Positions 2,269-9,231 of a DNA stretch of 35,594 nucleotides are shown piece after piece. A model generated the notes under the pieces. It was not told the origin of the DNA. It ran no database searches and saw only the letters and a list, made by a program, of their open reading frames with translations. The translations under genes and the position numbers were made by a program. Origin of the DNA: Chloroflexota bacterium (GTDB lineage Bacteria; Chloroflexota; Dormibacteria; Dormibacterales; Dormibacteraceae); contig VBEK01000145.1 in NCBI GenBank assembly GCA_005889135.1, positions 1 through 35,594 of the forward strand. Reading direction: 5' to 3'. The number at the start of each line of letters is the position of its first letter. Positions within the stretch are counted from its first letter, which is position 1.

Positions 2269-3660
2269 CTAGCGCCGCACCGTCAGCACGTCGCCGAGGA
2301 CGAAACCGTGGTCGGTGATCTCGTAGCGGTGCACCACGGGGCGATGCTCCTGGGCGCGGGTCTTCAACAGGGTCAGCGCCCTCGCCAGCTCCGCTCCCTC
2401 CTGCACGTACTGGAGGAGGATGACGTTGTCCGCCAGATGCGAGATGCCCTGCTCGGAGATGCGCTCGACCTGGAACAGCTCCGGCACCTCAATGATCAGC
2501 ATCAGGCTTACACCCGCGCGCGTGAAGCGCTGGGTCAGCGAGAAGATCCACTCCCGGAATCTGATCGGGTCGCCGGCTGCGATCTCGACGTCGGGCAGGC
2601 TGTCGATGACGATGCGCCTGGCGCCCACACGATCGGCCAGTTCGATGAGCTCGTACACCCACTCGTCGACGTTCATGCCGACGACGCCGCGGGCCATCAC
2701 GTGCACGTCTGGGTTGTCGGTCGACCATCCGAAGCTCTTGACGATCCGGCCGAGCTGCGTCTCGTTCTCGTGGAACGTGGCCAGGACCCCCGGCTCCCCG
2801 ATCTTGGCGCCATGAAAGAGAAAGTGGAGGCCCATCAGCGTTTTGCCGATACCCGAGGGTCCCGTGATCAGGGTCGTGGACCCCGCCCAGTAACCACCGG
2901 CTCCAAGGAGAGCGTCCAGGGCGGCGATCCCGGTCGCCGATTGCTCAGTCCTGAGCTGGTAGGGCGTTTCGATCTGCTCCTCCGCCAAACGCGGAAAGAC
3001 CACGAACCCATCATCCGAGATGCGGTAGCTGTGCTCGCCCGACCGATACTGGCTGCCCCGCAGCTTCAGCACCTGGAGGACACGGACCTCCCGCTCCGCC
3101 ATCTGCCTGACGTCGAGCGAGAGGACCGAGTCCGCCACCGCCGACTCGGCCTCTTCGATGGCCTGGGAGCGCGTGTAGGGTGCGTTCCAGATCGACGTCG
3201 CCGCCGTCGCCGACAGGCGCCGGAGCAGACCGTAGAGGAACTGGCGGAACACGCTGATGTCGCCCGCGATCGATTGGAAGGCGCGAAAGCTGTCGATGAC
3301 GACGATGCCTGGCCGGACTCGCCTCAGCAGTTGGTCGACGGCGTTTAGGACCTCGCCCAGGCTGCCTTCCCCGAGCGGCTGGCCGATGTCCTCGTAGACC
3401 ACGCGCCCATCGCGTACCGCGTGCGGGTCGAAGAAGCTCAAGCCCTCGCCGTACCGGAGGATCTTGTCGAGGGGCTCCGACAGCGTCGAGAGATAGAGCG
3501 AAGGTCTCTCCGCGGTGGCGTTGCGGAAGGCGACCTGCTGGCTGAGGATCGTCTTGCCGCTGCCGGGCACGCCGACGATGAGGTTGATGGCGTGCTTGAG
3601 CAGGCCGCCGTTCAGGATTTCGTCCAGGCGCGCGGTGCCGGTGGGGATGCGGTCGTTCAA
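2269..3660 (-). CDS. KaiC-like double RecA-domain ATPase
   Basis: A 463-residue KaiC-family protein with two RecA-type domains. Walker A motifs are GVPGSGKT (30-37) and GPSGIGKT (267-274). Walker B strands are VVIDS (around 123) and IVIDS (around 353). LKLRGSQYRSGEH (about 199-210) matches the KaiC linker. Cyanobacterial KaiC has a paired Glu after each P-loop; here S61-E62 and H297-E298 keep only one Glu each. At the KaiC S431/T432 site it has S407-H408, so one phospho-acceptor is kept and the Thr is lost. It is shorter than the 519-residue clock KaiC and no kaiA or kaiB is nearby. It overlaps the MerR/receiver gene by 4 bp, implying one signalling unit. True clock function is not implied; many bacteria use such proteins in redox or stress signalling. 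Confidence 0.9.
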   Translation of the reverse strand: MNDRIPTGTARLDEILNGGLLKHAINLIVGVPGSGKTILSQQVAFRNATAERPSLYLSTLSEPLDKILRYGEGLSFFDPHAVRDGRVVYEDIGQPLGEGSLGEVLNAVDQLLRRVRPGIVVIDSFRAFQSIAGDISVFRQFLYGLLRRLSATAATSIWNAPYTRSQAIEEAESAVADSVLSLDVRQMAEREVRVLQVLKLRGSQYRSGEHSYRISDDGFVVFPRLAEEQIETPYQLRTEQSATGIAALDALLGAGGYWAGSTTLITGPSGIGKTLMGLHFLFHGAKIGEPGVLATFHENETQLGRIVKSFGWSTDNPDVHVMARGVVGMNVDEWVYELIELADRVGARRIVIDSLPDVEIAAGDPIRFREWIFSLTQRFTRAGVSLMLIIEVPELFQVERISEQGISHLADNVILLQYVQEGAELARALTLLKTRAQEHRPVVHRYEITDHGFVLGDVLTVRR

Positions 3661-4334
3661 CGCTCGACGCGGCGCTCCGGCGGCCGCTCGACGAGCGCGC
3701 TCGAGCCCAGCAGGTCGTGGATGGTGGACAGAAGCGTCAGCGGGTCGAGCGGCTTGCGCAGGAACGCCGCCGCACCGGCGGCCATCGCCTCGCCGGCGCT
3801 GTCGAGCGAGGAGACAGCGACGACCTGCGCCGTGTGCTTCTCGGTGAACTCATGGAGCAGCCTGAATCCGGCCCCGCCGGAGAGCAGCAGATCGAGAAGC
3901 ACCACGTCCGGAGACCGTTCCTCGATGTGCAGCTTGGCCTGCGTCGCATCGAGCGCGATCACCACGTCCCAGCCCTCGGTGCGGAGGAAGTACTCCGCGA
4001 GGTCGGCGGCGTAGCTGTCTCGCTCGGCGATCAGGATCAATGGACGGCCGCCGATGAAGCTGGCGGTGGGCTGGGCCGGAACGTGGCCCTCGCGCAGCTG
4101 ATCGGCGAGCAGCCGGTGCGCGTCGGCGGCGCTGACGCCTGACTCGATCCGCGACTTGATGAAACGGAGCTTCTCCACCTGGCCGCGGGAGTACAACCGG
4201 TGGGCACCTTCGCTCCGGGTGGGCGTGATCAGCGCGTAGCGCTCCTCCCAGGCGCGGAGCGTGGAAGCCGGCACACCCAGCACCCTGGCCACCGCGCCGA
4301 TCGAATAGATCGGCTGATCGGATCCGCGCGCCAT
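3657..4334 (-). CDS. MerR-type HTH fused to receiver domain
   Basis: A 225-residue regulator. Residues 9-75 are a MerR-type winged helix: YSIGAVARVLGVPASTLRAW, then HRLYSRGQVEKLRFIK. Residues 98-212 are a CheY-like receiver with phospho-acceptor D148 (VVLLDLLLSGGAG) and the conserved Lys194 (FLRKPLDP). In MerR proteins such as CarH this position holds a ligand-binding domain, so replacement by a receiver suggests control by phosphorylation. I start it at ATG 4334 because the frame upstream (open to 4787) loses family similarity and runs over the divergent promoter region; the Shine-Dalgarno there is weak. Its stop overlaps the KaiC-like gene start by 4 bp. No histidine kinase is visible here. 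Confidence 0.85.
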   Translation of the reverse strand: MARGSDQPIYSIGAVARVLGVPASTLRAWEERYALITPTRSEGAHRLYSRGQVEKLRFIKSRIESGVSAADAHRLLADQLREGHVPAQPTASFIGGRPLILIAERDSYAADLAEYFLRTEGWDVVIALDATQAKLHIEERSPDVVLLDLLLSGGAGFRLLHEFTEKHTAQVVAVSSLDSAGEAMAAGAAAFLRKPLDPLTLLSTIHDLLGSSALVERPPERRVER

Positions 4335-4522
4335 CTGGTAAGTCCGCCAGTCTATTCCTCCCACACTGACCTTCTTCCAATAGTTTATGCGCACCTCTTG
4401 CAGAGATATAGCCCTAATGGTAAGGTGATAAGGCGATACTGCGGAGTAATTGCATATGGCCTCTCGAGAAGGAAGCCAGGCTGGCGGAAGGGGCGAAGAA
4501 TGGGGGGAGTCGCGCAGCGATC
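4335..4522. promoter_or_regulatory. Divergent promoter region, candidate promoter
   Basis: This 188-bp gap separates the MerR-receiver gene (minus) from the stand-alone receiver gene (plus). Its middle (about 4362-4460) is clearly richer in A/T than the rest of the window. On the plus strand TTGCAG (4398-4403), a 17-nt spacer and TAAGGT (4421-4426) resemble a sigma-70 promoter for the receiver gene, with a long leader of about 90 nt. I could not pick a convincing minus-strand promoter, nor a clean MerR dyad operator. A MerR-type protein binding here is inference from position. Confidence 0.4.
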
Positions 4523-4951
4523 GTGCTAGATGCGATCGGTCCGGAGCGAGGTGGGGGCCGCGGCGGCCGGTGGGCAGTCCTGCTCGTTGAGGACGATGCC
4601 GGCACCTCCGAGACTTACCGCGCGGGCCTCGAGGCGTTCGGCTTTCGGGTCCGGGTCGAGGTCGACGGCGCCGGCCTGTTCCGGGCGGTGGAGTCCGAAT
4701 TGCCGGACATCGTCGTCCTCGACTGGGAGCTCCCGGACATGAGCGGCGACGAGGTGCTGCACAGAGTGCGACTGGACGAACGCACACGCTCGCTGCCGGT
4801 GTTCATACTCAGCGACTTTCCCGCCTCATCGAACGGCGAGGTCGACCGTGTGTTCCTCCTGGGGGCGCTGGCCTGGCTGCAGAAGGTCAAGACACCTCCT
4901 GCTCAGCTCGCAGAAAAGTTGACGGAGGCCCTGACGGCAGGCCGGGACTAA
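4523..4951 (+). CDS. Stand-alone response regulator receiver protein
   Basis: A 142-residue single-domain response regulator without an output domain. The acidic pair ED lies in VLLVEDDAG (about 19-27), the phospho-acceptor Asp in IVVLDWELPDMSG, and the conserved Lys region in LAWLQKVKTP. GTG at 4523 is chosen, with the G-rich GGGGGGAG about 13 nt upstream; GTG at 4569 would trim a glycine-rich N-terminus that looks non-essential. It is divergent from the MerR-receiver/KaiC-like pair, so it probably belongs to the same circuit, passing or competing for phosphate. Confidence 0.83.
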   Translation: MLDAIGPERGGGRGGRWAVLLVEDDAGTSETYRAGLEAFGFRVRVEVDGAGLFRAVESELPDIVVLDWELPDMSGDEVLHRVRLDERTRSLPVFILSDFPASSNGEVDRVFLLGALAWLQKVKTPPAQLAEKLTEALTAGRD

Positions 4952-4969: not shown

Positions 4970-5215
4970 CTACCGGAAGCGGCGCACGAACAGGAACATC
5001 GCGGGCACCCACTGCTCGTCGGACACGGGTCGCCTGCGGCGCAGACGGCGGCGGATGAAGCCCCACACCGCAAGCTCGCCCGCGCGCGTCGGGTTGGCCC
5101 TGTCGTCGAGCTCGAGCTCGCGCGACAGTCCGTCGTCGCCGGGCAGCGGCGCGAAGATCGAGTACATGCTCTGCCGCTCCAGGCTGCGCAGGTCCCTCTC
5201 CTCGAGATGGCCCAT
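4970..5215 (-). CDS. Small hypothetical protein
   Basis: An 81-residue protein with no recognised domain. It has an acidic N-terminal half (MGHLEERDLRSLERQSM, ELELDDRANP), a basic stretch RRRLRRRR and a hydrophobic-aromatic end. Third codon positions are almost all G or C, supporting real coding. I prefer ATG 5215, which has AGGGA 8 nt upstream, over GTG 5239. It converges with the receiver gene, 18 bp away, and is divergent from the ECF sigma factor gene. The shared upstream gap of 92 bp carries two GTGACACC repeats, so it may be co-regulated with the sigma factor. Confidence 0.6.
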   Translation of the reverse strand: MGHLEERDLRSLERQSMYSIFAPLPGDDGLSRELELDDRANPTRAGELAVWGFIRRRLRRRRPVSDEQWVPAMFLFVRRFR

Positions 5216-5232
5216 GTCGATCTTCCCTGATT

Positions 5233-5259
5233 GTGACACCGCACCCGCCGGGTGACACC
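5233..5259. repeat. Paired GTGACACC direct repeats
   Basis: GTGACACC occurs at 5233-5240 and again at 5252-5259, 19 bp apart, in the 92-bp gap between the divergent small gene and the ECF sigma gene. The second copy sits in GGGTGACACCC, which is one base short of a palindrome. Two equal boxes about two helical turns apart in an ECF upstream region may be an operator or the -35 elements recognised by the sigma factor itself. This is inference from position. Confidence 0.35.
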
Positions 5260-5307
5260 CTTGATCGTGGTGGGCCCGTAGAACAGGTGTGGAGCGGTGT
5301 GTAGGTA

Positions 5308-5850
5308 ATGCTGGGCGACGATGAGGCTGCCCTCATCGCGCGCGCCAAAACCGGTGACCAGTACGCGTTCGAGCGCCTTCTCGGACCGGCGGTCCGCCCA
5401 GCGTCCCGCCTTGCGTTTGCCATGCTGCGCGACACCGCCCTGGCGGAAGACGCGTTTCAGGAGTCGGCGCTCCGGGCCTGGCGCAGGATCGGCAACCTGC
5501 GCCCCGGGGCCAGGTTCCAGCCGTGGTTCCTCGGCATCGTCGCGAACCAGTGCCGCGAGGTCCGCCGGGGAAGGTGGTGGCAGGTGATCCGCCTGCCCGA
5601 GATCGCAACGACCGCGGCGCTCGATGCGACGGCGGCGTGGCTCGAGGGCGAGGACCTGCGCCAGGCGCTGCAGACGCTGCCGTTCGACCAGCGCGTCGCG
5701 ATCCTTCTGCACTTCCACCTCGACATGCCTCTCACCGACGTCGCGCTCGCGCTCGACGTCTCGGTGGCCGGCGTGAAGACGAGGATCAACCGGGCGCTCA
5801 AGCGCCTGCGCCCGGCCGTGACCGCAGCGGAGGCCAAGGCCGATGGCTGA
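5308..5850 (+). CDS. ECF-type RNA polymerase sigma factor
   Basis: A 180-residue extracytoplasmic-function sigma factor. Region 2 covers about residues 20-85 (LRDTALAEDAFQESALRAWR, RFQPWFLGIVANQCREVRR). Region 4 covers about 115-170 (LRQALQTLPFDQRVAILLHF, then the HTH MPLTDVALALDVSVAGVKTR). There is no C-terminal SnoaL-like extension. ATG 5308 is the first start after the intergenic gap; its ribosome site is weak. The end overlaps the next gene by 8 bp, so the two are translationally coupled, the normal arrangement for an ECF sigma and its anti-sigma factor. The target genes are not evident in the window. Confidence 0.93.
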   Translation: MLGDDEAALIARAKTGDQYAFERLLGPAVRPASRLAFAMLRDTALAEDAFQESALRAWRRIGNLRPGARFQPWFLGIVANQCREVRRGRWWQVIRLPEIATTAALDATAAWLEGEDLRQALQTLPFDQRVAILLHFHLDMPLTDVALALDVSVAGVKTRINRALKRLRPAVTAAEAKADG

Positions 5851-7474
5851 AGAGTCCCTGCGCCGCAGCCTCGACGCCGCTTTTGACCCCGGGCCCGACT
5901 TTCCCGACCCGCGGCTGCTCTCGCGCACCATGGCGACGCTGGCAGAGGTCGAGTCGGCGCCCACGAAGCGTGCGCCGGCAAGGCGCACGCCGATCGTCCT
6001 GGAGCCCACGACCCGCGGAGGGCGCCTGGTTGCGGCGGCGCTGATCGTCCTCCTGCTGCTTGCGGCCGCCGGCGCGTTCATCGCCGTGCAGCACTACTTC
6101 GTCTCCCCCATCCCGGCCGGATGGCGCGCCTGCGGCGGCAGCTTCCAGTGCGCCGACGTCAGCGTGCCGCTGGACTATACGAACCCCGGCGCGGGTTCGA
6201 TCACGATCGCGGCGGTCCGCAAGCCGGCGACCGACGCCTCGCACCGCATCGGCGCGCTGGCGCTGAGCCTTGGCCTGCCGGTCGTGTCCGGGATCGACTA
6301 CCTGCGCGACAACTCCGTGCTCTACGACAAGTTCAACTCTCGTCTCGACCTCATCGGGTTCGACGTGCGCGGCACTGGCCGCAGCGCGCCGGTGCGCTGC
6401 CTCACAGGCCCCGAGACCGACGCGATCAACCAGGTCGACACCGTCCTGGACGACGCGCGTGAGAAGCAGCTCTTCATCGAATCGGCGATCGCCCACGCCC
6501 AGGCATGCGAGCAGACGAGCGGGCGCATCCTGCCGTTCGTCGACACCGCCAGCGCGGCGCGCGACCTCGACGCGATCCGCAGGTCGCTGGGCGACTCGCA
6601 GCTGACAATCATGGCGTTCGGCTACGGCACGCTCCTGGGCGAGATTTACGCGCGCCTCTTTCCCTCGCACCTCCGGGCGATGGTGCTCGACGGCGTCTAT
6701 GACCCCTCGCTCAGCGCGACGGACGCCTGGCTGCGGCGCGCCGCGGGCTACGAGGAGAGCCTGCAGGCGTTCCTCGCCGACTGCCGCGATTTCGCCGGGT
6801 GCGAGCTCGGCAGCGACCCGGCGGCGAAGCTGAACGCGCTCTTGCGACGCGTCGACGAGGCGCCGATGACCGTCGGGTCACGCACGCTGAGCCATCGCCT
6901 CGCGATCTCGGCGGTGCTGCTCGGGCTCGAGCCCGACAACTGGCGCCGGCTCGACGCGGCCTTGAGCGAGGCGGCAGGGGGCGATGGCAAGGCGCTGCTG
7001 GCGATGGCCGACGAGTATTACGGCCGCCAGCCGGACGGCTCCTACTCGTTCAACGGCGACGCCGTGGCCGCGGTCACGTGCCTCGACCAGCCCGCGCCCA
7101 AGGACGTGAGCGCCTACGACCAGCTCGGTCCGGCGATGGCCGCGGCCTCCCCCACCTTCGGCCCGGCCTTCCAGTACGTGGCGCTTCAATGCGCGTACTG
7201 GCCGGCGCAGCCAGGACCGAGGGCGCAGCCGCAGAGCGCCGGCGGCGTGCCGCCGATCCTGCTCGTTGGGGCCACCCACGACCCGGGTTGGTCCTACGCC
7301 GGGGCGAAGGGGGTGAACCGGCAGCTCCCCGGCTCAGTGCTGCTCACCCGTGACGGCTACGGGACCCTGTCGTACCCCAGGAGCGGGTGCGTGCGCGTGG
7401 CGGTCGACGCCTATCTCCTCCGGCTGAGCATGCCCGCGTCGGGCACCGTCTGCGCGTCCGACTACCCTGCCTAG
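5843..7474 (+). CDS. Membrane-anchored pseudo-hydrolase, candidate anti-sigma
   Basis: A 543-residue protein with a cytoplasmic N-terminus (1-60, containing FPDPRLLSRTMATL), one membrane span (about 61-83) and an outside domain (about 90-543) of the tripeptidyl-aminopeptidase/SlpD-like alpha/beta-hydrolase family. Fold motifs are kept: FDVRGTGRSAPVRC (173-186), LFPSHLRAMVLDGVYDPS (272-289), LPGSVLLTRDG (495-505) and the GTVC end (534-537). The catalytic parts are not. The nucleophile elbow, normally G-x-S-Y-G-T, reads AFGYGT with Gly260 for Ser (codon GGC). The oxyanion motif NPGGPGGSG is replaced by LGLPVVSG. The His expected after DGYG is Thr508. Only the Asp (D480, in THDP) survives. Translational coupling to the ECF sigma gene suggests an anti-sigma factor sensing an outside ligand. 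This role is inferred; the loss of catalytic residues is seen. Confidence 0.85.
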   Translation: MAEESLRRSLDAAFDPGPDFPDPRLLSRTMATLAEVESAPTKRAPARRTPIVLEPTTRGGRLVAAALIVLLLLAAAGAFIAVQHYFVSPIPAGWRACGGSFQCADVSVPLDYTNPGAGSITIAAVRKPATDASHRIGALALSLGLPVVSGIDYLRDNSVLYDKFNSRLDLIGFDVRGTGRSAPVRCLTGPETDAINQVDTVLDDAREKQLFIESAIAHAQACEQTSGRILPFVDTASAARDLDAIRRSLGDSQLTIMAFGYGTLLGEIYARLFPSHLRAMVLDGVYDPSLSATDAWLRRAAGYEESLQAFLADCRDFAGCELGSDPAAKLNALLRRVDEAPMTVGSRTLSHRLAISAVLLGLEPDNWRRLDAALSEAAGGDGKALLAMADEYYGRQPDGSYSFNGDAVAAVTCLDQPAPKDVSAYDQLGPAMAAASPTFGPAFQYVALQCAYWPAQPGPRAQPQSAGGVPPILLVGATHDPGWSYAGAKGVNRQLPGSVLLTRDGYGTLSYPRSGCVRVAVDAYLLRLSMPASGTVCASDYPA

Positions 7475-7500
7475 CCCCGCGCCCTAACCTTCTATTCGGG

Positions 7501-8469
7501 ATGCGGGAGGACTTCGCCGCCGGCGCGCGCAACGCTGTGCGCGCGTGTCTCAACATCGGCGAGCGCGACCGCGTCTTCATCATTCGCGACCAAGCGAGGA
7601 CCGAGATCGCGGAGGCGATCGAGGAAGAGGCGAAGAGCACGGGAGCGACCGTGAAGGCGTGGACGATCGAGGAACACCTCCAGCGGCCGGCGACGACGTT
7701 TCCCAAGGAGCTCGGCGAGGAGGTGATTCGCTACCGGCCGACAGCGTCGTTCTACATCGGCACCGGGATGCGCGGCGAGCTCGGTTTCCGGCAGCCGATG
7801 CTGCACCTGCTCGCGGACGAGCTGCGGGCCAGGCACGGGCACATGATCGGCATCAACGACGAGGTCATGACCGACGGCATGGCCGGGGACTATGACGCCA
7901 TCTACAAGATGACCCACAAGGTGTTCGACGTCGCGCGCCAGGCGAGGACGATCGCGGTCCAGACGTCGCTCGGCACCGACCTGGTGGCGACTTTCTCGCC
8001 GTCGCTGAAGTGGACGCCCTCCGACGGACGCTTCTGGGAGCAGGGCCGGTGGGGGAACCTGCCCGAGGGCGAGACGTTCACGTGCCCGGCCTCTGTCGAC
8101 GGGGTGCTCGCCGCCGAAGAGCTGGGCGACTGGTTCACGGAGCGGTACGGCATGCTGTCGCCGCCGCTCCGAATCGTCATCCGCGCCGGCCGCGTGGCGT
8201 CGCTCGAGACCTCCAACGCGCAGCTGGAGTCGGAGTTCCGCGAGTACCTGGGCCAGCACCCCAACTCCAACCGCGCCGGCGAGTTCGCGATCGGCACTAA
8301 CGTCGGCCTCACTCGCATCATCGGCAACTTCCTGCAGGACGAGAAGTTCCCGGGCGTGCACATCGCGTTCGGCGACCCGTATGGCTTCGAGACAGGTGCG
8401 GACTGGCAGGCGCCCTCGCACGTGGACGCTCTGGCGTCGCACGCGACGGTCACGGTGGACGGCCGGCGG
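7501..8469 (+). CDS. M29-family aminopeptidase, 3' end lost
   Basis: A metallo-aminopeptidase of the thermophilic-aminopeptidase (AmpS/AmpT, M29) family, starting at ATG 7501 with MREDFAAGARNAVRACL. About 323 residues match the family, including GEFAIGTNVGLTRIIGN, PGVHIAFGDPYG and SHVDAL, which carry the Glu and His metal ligands. Such proteins remove N-terminal residues from peptides in the cytoplasm using two metal ions. The similarity ends at TVTVDGRR (near 8469) where about ten more residues and a stop are expected. The frame instead stays open to TGA 9037-9039, running antisense through the dioxygenase gene. The end given is therefore the end of similarity, not a stop codon. It follows the pseudo-hydrolase gene by 26 bp. 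Confidence 0.8.
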
Positions 8470-9231
8470 ACCGAAGCTCGCCGCGTAGCCGCTGCCGGAC
8501 TTCGACACGTTCGCCAGCAGCGACGCGCCGCTGTTGTTGTTGGACGTGTAGACCATGTCGTTGGCGTTGCGCATGTCCCGGACGCCGCGCGAGCTGTAAG
8601 GCGACTTCTGGAAGACCTCGTCCGAGACCGCGTCGTCGAAGAAGATCTGCGAGGTGAACTCGGTTCCCTGGTGTCGGACCTTGAAATGGATGTGCACCGC
8701 GCGCCCGCGATACCAGCCTGGGTAGACCGTCGTGAACGTCACCTTGCCGCTCGCGTCCGTGACCTGGTAGCCGCGGAGAAACTTCTTGCCCACGCTGCTC
8801 TGGGCGCTCACGTCCGAATAGACGCCGAGCGCGTCGCAGTGCCAGACGTCGACCTGCGCACCCGGAAGCGCGGTGCACGAGGCGCCAACCCTGGCCACGC
8901 TGAAGGTCATGGCCAGCGGCACGCCGGTCCGGTCGTCACGAATGTCGGAGCGGTTGAGGCGCTCGTCGACGAAGTAGGGACCTTCGGTCTCCGACGGCGT
9001 GACGACGCACGCGGGCAATGGGACCGAGGTGGCGCTTGATGTGGACGATGGCGACGCTGAGGTGGTCGCGCCCGTCTGCGTCCCGCCACCGCACGCCGCG
9101 CCCACCGCGGCGTAGACCGCCCCAAGTCCCGCAACGATCATGCGCCGCCGCGAGATCGTGGCCGCGAGCAGGCCCTCGAGCTGACTCACCGGGCGAGTAT
9201 CGCGCGCAAGCCTGGGAGCTGGCTCCAGCAT
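8470..9231 (-). CDS. Tat-lipoprotein intradiol ring-cleavage dioxygenase, 3' end lost
   Basis: An extracellular lipoprotein relative of catechol/protocatechuate intradiol dioxygenases. The N-terminus has a twin-arginine-like stretch ISRRRMIVAG and a lipobox VGAAC (Cys47), followed by a Ser/Thr-rich linker. The dioxygenase domain shows TPSETEGPYFVDE, VDVWHCDALGVYSD and GWYRGRAVHIHFKV, which supply the two Tyr and two His iron ligands. I use ATG 9231; GTG 9189 is possible. Similarity ends at GYAASF (codon at 8473-8475). No stop occurs there, and the frame stays open antisense through the whole peptidase gene to 7492. The coordinate 8470 marks the junction, not a stop. It is divergent from the MsrQ-like gene. 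Confidence 0.8.

What the first reader, a model, noticed from the sequence alone, without database searches (positions are those of the whole stretch)
5308..7474. ECF sigma factor coupled to a membrane-anchored dead hydrolase
The gene overlapping the ECF sigma gene should encode its anti-sigma factor. It encodes instead a cytoplasmic stretch of about 60 residues, one membrane span and an outside alpha/beta-hydrolase of the tripeptidyl-aminopeptidase type. That domain lost its Ser (Gly260), its His (Thr508) and its oxyanion motif while its fold motifs are intact. The pattern suggests an enzyme turned into a ligand sensor that controls sigma release: a transmembrane receptor built from a pseudo-peptidase, perhaps binding peptides or esters. 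The missing residues are read from the sequence; the signalling role is inference.
Basis: partly seen in the sequence, partly recalled or inferred. Interest (0 to 1): 0.85.

Follow-up and report, generated by a model that had tools for sequence, protein, structure and literature searches.

The report
Anti-sigma receptor with dead peptidase ectodomain
A bacterial gene switch seems to be held at the membrane by a protein whose outer part is a peptidase that lost its cutting residues and probably now serves as a sensor, while close relatives carry the same inner part with a quite different outer part.

Summary
An ECF sigma gene (5308-5850) overlaps by 8 bases a gene (5843-7474) for about 57 cytoplasmic residues, one membrane helix and a Hip1/TAP-type hydrolase with Ser->Gly260 and His->Thr508. 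The loss is conserved: 4 of 4 sigma-linked receptors found (one genus) have Gly for Ser, T/F/V/A for His and W/Y for an active-site Thr; 31 of 31 free relatives read keep Ser, Asp and His (11 of 42 were not read). The oxyanion loss is not conserved (2 of 4 keep the motif). The receptors form one clade under purifying selection.

New here: the sigma's next relatives (66-69% identical) share the N-terminal segment and promoter motif but carry an unrelated ectodomain. Of 113 distinct sigma/next-gene pairs of this class, 108 have a short N-terminal segment, a membrane helix and varied ectodomains. So the pseudo-peptidase looks like one exchangeable sensor on a modular, probably two-helix anti-sigma receptor. 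A model of a relative puts the helices on a closed sigma factor (one of five models confident). Three related genomes lack the pair at the same locus. Sigma binding, ligand and release are inferred. Precedents: RsgI6-GH10, RsiV. New variant of a known kind.

The parts
5242..7482 (+). approximate extent of the sigma/receptor unit, absent between the same neighbours in G009, G012 and G014
   Evidence: neighbour genes C and M29 lie 41, 19 and 19 bases apart there
5253..5280 (+). putative sigma-dependent promoter TGACACC-N16-CCGTA
   Evidence: same motif upstream of all six close sigma genes; the only exact match in G000, G003, G005 and G006; use not tested
5308..5850 (+). ECF sigma factor, 180 aa, regions 2 and 4
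5843..7474 (+). putative anti-sigma receptor, 543 aa
5846..5953 (+). residues 2-37: two predicted helices (2-13, 23-37) round a Pro-rich linker; putative sigma-binding segment
   Evidence: pLDDT there only about 43-51; binding inferred
6014..6100 (+). membrane helix, residues 58-86
6110..7471 (+). pseudo-hydrolase ectodomain, about residues 90-543, Hip1/TAP fold
6620..6622 (+). Gly260 in place of the catalytic Ser
7280..7282 (+). Asp480, catalytic Asp kept
7289..7291 (+). Trp483 in place of the active-site Thr (Hip1 Thr466 by alignment)
7364..7366 (+). Thr508 in place of the catalytic His
4970..5239 (-). conserved flanking small gene C (no Pfam match)
7501..8469 (+). conserved flanking M29 aminopeptidase (residues 1-323 as conserved in relatives), 26 bases behind the receptor

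Best explanation
A one-spanning anti-sigma receptor. Its first 37 residues, two short helices round a Pro linker as in class II anti-sigma domains, hold the ECF sigma factor inactive at the membrane. Outside, a Hip1/TAP-type hydrolase that lost Ser, His and an active-site Thr serves as a binding module. Binding of an unknown ligand or partner would expose the short stretch next to the membrane to a first protease; an M50 protease in the membrane and cytoplasmic proteases would finish, and the freed sigma factor would transcribe its own operon from TGACACC-N16-CCGTA. Shown: anatomy, conserved pairing, conserved loss, one origin, purifying selection, N-terminus shared with proteins of other ectodomains, conserved promoter motif. 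Inferred: sigma binding, ligand binding, proteolytic release, promoter use.
For: Overlapping genes, paired in 4 of 4 genomes with this receptor. Ser and His lost in 4 of 4, kept in 31 of 31 free relatives read. Of 147 columns conserved in the free rows, receptors depart together at 10, including Ser, His, the Thr and its neighbour. One clade, 100/99; dN/dS about 0.31-0.38. Sigma relatives at 69 and 66% have the same N-terminus and promoter motif with another ectodomain. 108 of 113 distinct pairs show short N-terminus plus membrane helix. Model of a relative: helices packed on sigma, nearest solved forms SigW with RsiW, RpoE with NepR, CnrH with CnrY at TMt 0.70-0.77, RNA-polymerase-bound forms about 0.4. 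M50 proteases in the genome.
Against: No binding or activity data. No sequence match of the N-terminus to a solved anti-sigma domain or to Pfam. In the window's own model the N-terminal helices have low confidence. Only 1 of 5 models of the relative was confident, it was not the window's pair, and there was no sigma-alone control. Other inhibited complexes (MucA, RseA, RskA, RsbN) fit poorly, TMt 0.39-0.49. Covariation inconclusive. Strict promoter matches give a regulon of little more than its own operon.
Confidence: 0.74

Rival explanations
1. Anti-sigma receptor as above, but the ectodomain senses a protein partner or works as a shield for the cleavage site rather than binding a small ligand in the old active site; the site died because it was no longer used.
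For: The pocket-side Thr is W or Y in 4 of 4 receptors and His is replaced by unlike residues (T, F, V, A), as if the site were relaxed or filled. The other ectodomains, such as propellers, are common protein binders (role recalled).
Against: Departures shared by all receptors are few (10 of 147 columns) and centred on the active site, which also fits a reshaped binding pocket.
Confidence: 0.3
2. The second gene is not an anti-sigma factor but a membrane protein made under the sigma factor's control.
For: No direct binding evidence; the shared promoter would make both.
Against: The short N-terminal segment follows the sigma gene in 108 of 113 distinct pairs while ectodomains vary; no other anti-sigma candidate was seen next to the pair in the window (small genes not all examined).
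Confidence: 0.1
3. The ectodomain is still an enzyme through other residues.
For: Asp480 and much of the fold are kept.
Against: Neither nucleophile nor base is kept in 4 of 4.
Confidence: 0.03
4. A decaying gene.
For: Absent from other genomes of the genus; oxyanion motif lost in two of four.
Against: Frames open, dN/dS 0.31-0.38, one clade, promoter motif and C-terminal SDYPA conserved.
Confidence: 0.01

Closest known systems
RsgI6 of Clostridium thermocellum, anti-SigI6 with a GH10 ectodomain (PMC4711584, passages)
   Same: anti-sigma factor with one membrane span and an enzyme-derived ectodomain with very low activity that kept binding; family with different ectodomains
   Different: RsgI N-terminus of about 165 residues and a SigI factor without region 4; periplasmic autocleavage domain (PMC12203970, passages); here an ECF sigma with region 4, about 57 cytoplasmic residues and about 10 residues between membrane helix and hydrolase
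RsiV of Bacillus subtilis, lysozyme receptor (PMC5014341, passages)
   Same: anti-ECF factor that is itself a receptor; release by proteolysis
   Different: DUF4163/DUF3298 ectodomain; ligand known there, unknown here
CnrY, class II anti-sigma factor (PMC7406223, passages)
   Same: short two-helix cytoplasmic segment; first helix on region 4, second on region 2 in CnrY
   Different: no detectable sequence match; large ectodomains here
Hip1/carboxylesterase A of Mycobacterium tuberculosis
   Same: fold over the whole ectodomain, 32-33% identity, TMt 0.87-0.89
   Different: Hip1 keeps Ser228 (PDB titles) and His; no sigma partner or cytoplasmic segment (recalled)
ECF57 sigma factors with WD40-like C-terminal extensions (PMC8999054, passages)
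   Same: sigma factors linked to propeller-like domains
   Different: there fused to the sigma factor itself, here on a separate membrane protein

Membership tests
ECF sigma factor | regions 2 and 4 without region 3 | tested here: met
   Pfam finds only regions 2 and 4
Class II (CnrY-like) anti-sigma factor | cytoplasmic part under 50 residues forming two helices | tested here: inconclusive
   two helices within residues 2-37 (pLDDT about 43-51 there), confident in one model of a relative; membrane helix from about residue 58
Class II (CnrY-like) anti-sigma factor | sequence similarity to CnrY | tested here: not met
   profile of 79 segments finds no anti-sigma chain in the PDB up to E 10
Class II (CnrY-like) anti-sigma factor | binds regions 2 and 4 of its sigma factor | not testable with these tools
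   model of a relative only
Class I anti-sigma factor | domain of about 100 residues | tested here: not met
   about 57 cytoplasmic residues, no Pfam match in residues 1-90
TAP/Hip1 serine hydrolase | fold | tested here: met
TAP/Hip1 serine hydrolase | Ser-Asp-His triad | tested here: not met
   Gly260, Asp480, Thr508
RsgI family | RsgI N-terminal domain and periplasmic autocleavage domain | tested here: not met
   no such Pfam match; about 10 residues between membrane helix and hydrolase
RsiV family | DUF4163/DUF3298 ectodomain | tested here: not met

The most novel reading that the evidence does not exclude
Bacteria of this class (closest named match Candidatus Dormiibacterota) run a large family of sigma/receptor pairs built on one tiny two-helix anti-sigma segment whose ectodomain is freely exchanged: propellers, AMIN-like domains, and here a TAP peptidase that was captured once, disabled at Ser, His and Thr, and kept as a sensor in a 2.2-kb unit that is present or cleanly absent at one locus.
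Probability: 0.66. Interest if true: 0.72.

Novelty: new variant of a known kind. Interest (0 to 1): 0.62.

Why it matters
If right, this is a natural ectodomain swap on anti-sigma receptors in which both an intact free enzyme of the same family (in the same genome) and an alternative ectodomain on the same N-terminus can still be seen. It points to a very small sigma-binding segment that tolerates many sensors, and gives a second, testable case after RsgI6-GH10 of an enzyme turned into a receptor for a sigma factor.

Tried and rejected
Pfam (residues 1-90) and PDB profile searches gave no family for the N-terminal segment. A genome-contig scan with the receptor found no relative; one with the sigma alignment did. 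Covariation between sigma and N-terminal segment (109 rows, one a duplicate; Neff 43): best corrected value 0.254 against mean 0.178 and highest 0.215 of 20 random re-pairings; kinship is not controlled, so inconclusive. Over all 109 rows sigma identity correlates with N-terminal identity (0.72) hardly better than with ectodomain identity (0.68), since many rows are orthologues; the swap rests on named pairs, not on this. Profile matches outside the class were weak (best E 3.5e-4 in a small set, two Chloroflexi contigs) and not followed. A looser promoter pattern gave 1-4 sites per genome against 0-3 in the reversed control, not pursued. Selection was estimated by a simple Nei-Gojobori count of my own.

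Full report
Observation. The sigma protein has regions 2 and 4 only. The second protein has 543 residues; residues 99-537 match M. tuberculosis Hip1/carboxylesterase A at E 1.7e-67, with Pfam TAP-like and Abhydrolase_1 domains. The model has mean pLDDT 82.7, helices 2-13, 23-37 and 58-86 and then the hydrolase; the first two helices have low confidence, about 43-51. Its nearest PDB chains are six Hip1 entries, TM-score by target 0.87-0.89, identity 32-33%.

Active site. Gly260 and Thr508 replace Ser and His; Asp480 stays. One search covered 101 genomes and listed 47 places; 5 are receptor pieces of 4 genomes of one genus. All 4 receptors have Gly for Ser and T, F, V or A for His. Of the other 42 places I read 31 (28, 3) and all keep Ser, Asp and His; 11 were not read. 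In a 28-row alignment 147 columns are at least 90% conserved in the 23 free rows; all receptors depart at only 10: Ser, His, the Thr at 483 (W/W/Y/W), its neighbour 482, the lipobox Cys, and 87, 142, 175, 218, 299. By alignment the Thr is Hip1 Thr466 (numbering by an offset of 28 residues, total length recalled). The oxyanion motif is lost in the window and G005, kept in G003 and G006. The genome also holds an intact free relative at 47% identity (L002); its upstream side ends after 58 bases at a contig end, so that neighbour is unknown.

Maintained. The receptors form one clade (100/99; the G006 row was partial). In three pairwise comparisons the ectodomain has dN 0.30-0.36 and dS 0.89-1.01, ratio 0.31-0.38.

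The family. The next sigma relatives, G033 (69%) and G026 (66%), sit beside proteins with the same N-terminus (50-53% identical), a membrane helix and another ectodomain (identity to the window's 18-19%, background). I then took sigma places of this class by sigma similarity, not by the next gene: 30 loci given, 8 loci and 80 places picked by hand from the list, skipping several near contig ends. Of 118 sigma/next-frame pairs 112 have a strong hydrophobic helix starting at residues 28-71; without duplicate records 108 of 113; two further sigma hits had no next frame in reach. Of the 112, 105 have a Pro in residues 10-32. Consensus: m....LRrelr.AFD...gpP.PgLr.RV. Pfam on 109 rows, one a duplicate: YCF48-like/BNR in 25, AMIN-like in 21, Abhydrolase_1 in 4 (the receptors above), others in fewer; many rows may have no match. 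So the pseudo-peptidase looks like one ectodomain among many.

Anti-sigma role. No sequence match to a solved anti-sigma domain. In six relatives the two genes are in one frame; I modelled L166 read through its stop. The best model has pTM 0.76 and pLDDT 85-88 over residues 181-210; the other four are poor (61-67). Foldseek ranks SigW with RsiW and RpoE with NepR first, CnrH with CnrY 20th, TMt 0.70-0.77; polymerase-bound sigma factors reach about 0.4, and so do the complexes with MucA and RseA, those with RskA and RsbN 0.49. This is the closed form of some inhibited complexes, in a relative, without a sigma-alone control. Binding stays inferred.

Promoter. TGACACC-N16-CCGTA lies upstream of all six close sigma genes. 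Exact search: one match each in G000, G003, G005 and G006, always this site, none in the reversed control; two each in G026 and G033, one in G033's control.

Locus. In G009, G012 and G014 genes C and M29 are 41, 19 and 19 bases apart, without the pair or the promoter motif; G009 also keeps the KaiC, MerR/response-regulator and ferric-reductase-like neighbours. Gain or loss cannot be decided. M29 starts 26 bases behind the receptor and could share its promoter.

Known. RsgI6 carries a GH10 domain of very low activity that still binds (PMC4711584, passages); RsgI signals through autocleavage, RseP and ClpXP (PMC12203970, passages); RsiV is a lysozyme receptor cut by signal peptidase and RasP (PMC5014341, passages). 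M50 proteases are present here. CnrY's first helix binds region 4, the second region 2 (PMC7406223, passages). In the listings I met no anti-sigma factor with an alpha/beta-hydrolase ectodomain and no paper on this family; most subscription papers are not held, and the ECF reclassification paper was not read.

Verdict. Most likely a modular anti-sigma receptor with a pseudo-peptidase sensor; ligand and release step unknown.

Noticed in passing
window 7501-9039 (+): M29 aminopeptidase frame is conserved over residues 1-323 and then runs on open to 9039, whereas three relatives have open frames of 336 residues.
   Followed up: partly
L032 (G003) 7859-7972: Only a 38-residue match to M29 remains behind the receptor in G003, as if the gene were mostly deleted.
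   Followed up: no
window 7457-7471: All four receptors end in C-x-SDYPA, absent from the free enzymes of the alignment; role unknown.
   Followed up: no
window 2269-4787 (-): KaiC-like double ATPase next to a MerR/response-regulator protein, kept with the locus in G003, G006 and G009.
   Followed up: no
window 4970-5239 (-): Small conserved protein of 89 residues without Pfam match, divergent from the sigma gene.
   Followed up: no
L166, L169, L187 and similar loci: A large subfamily of sigma/receptor pairs with short receptors of about 240-255 residues; AMIN-like ectodomains were found in 21 of 109 rows, probably these.
   Followed up: no
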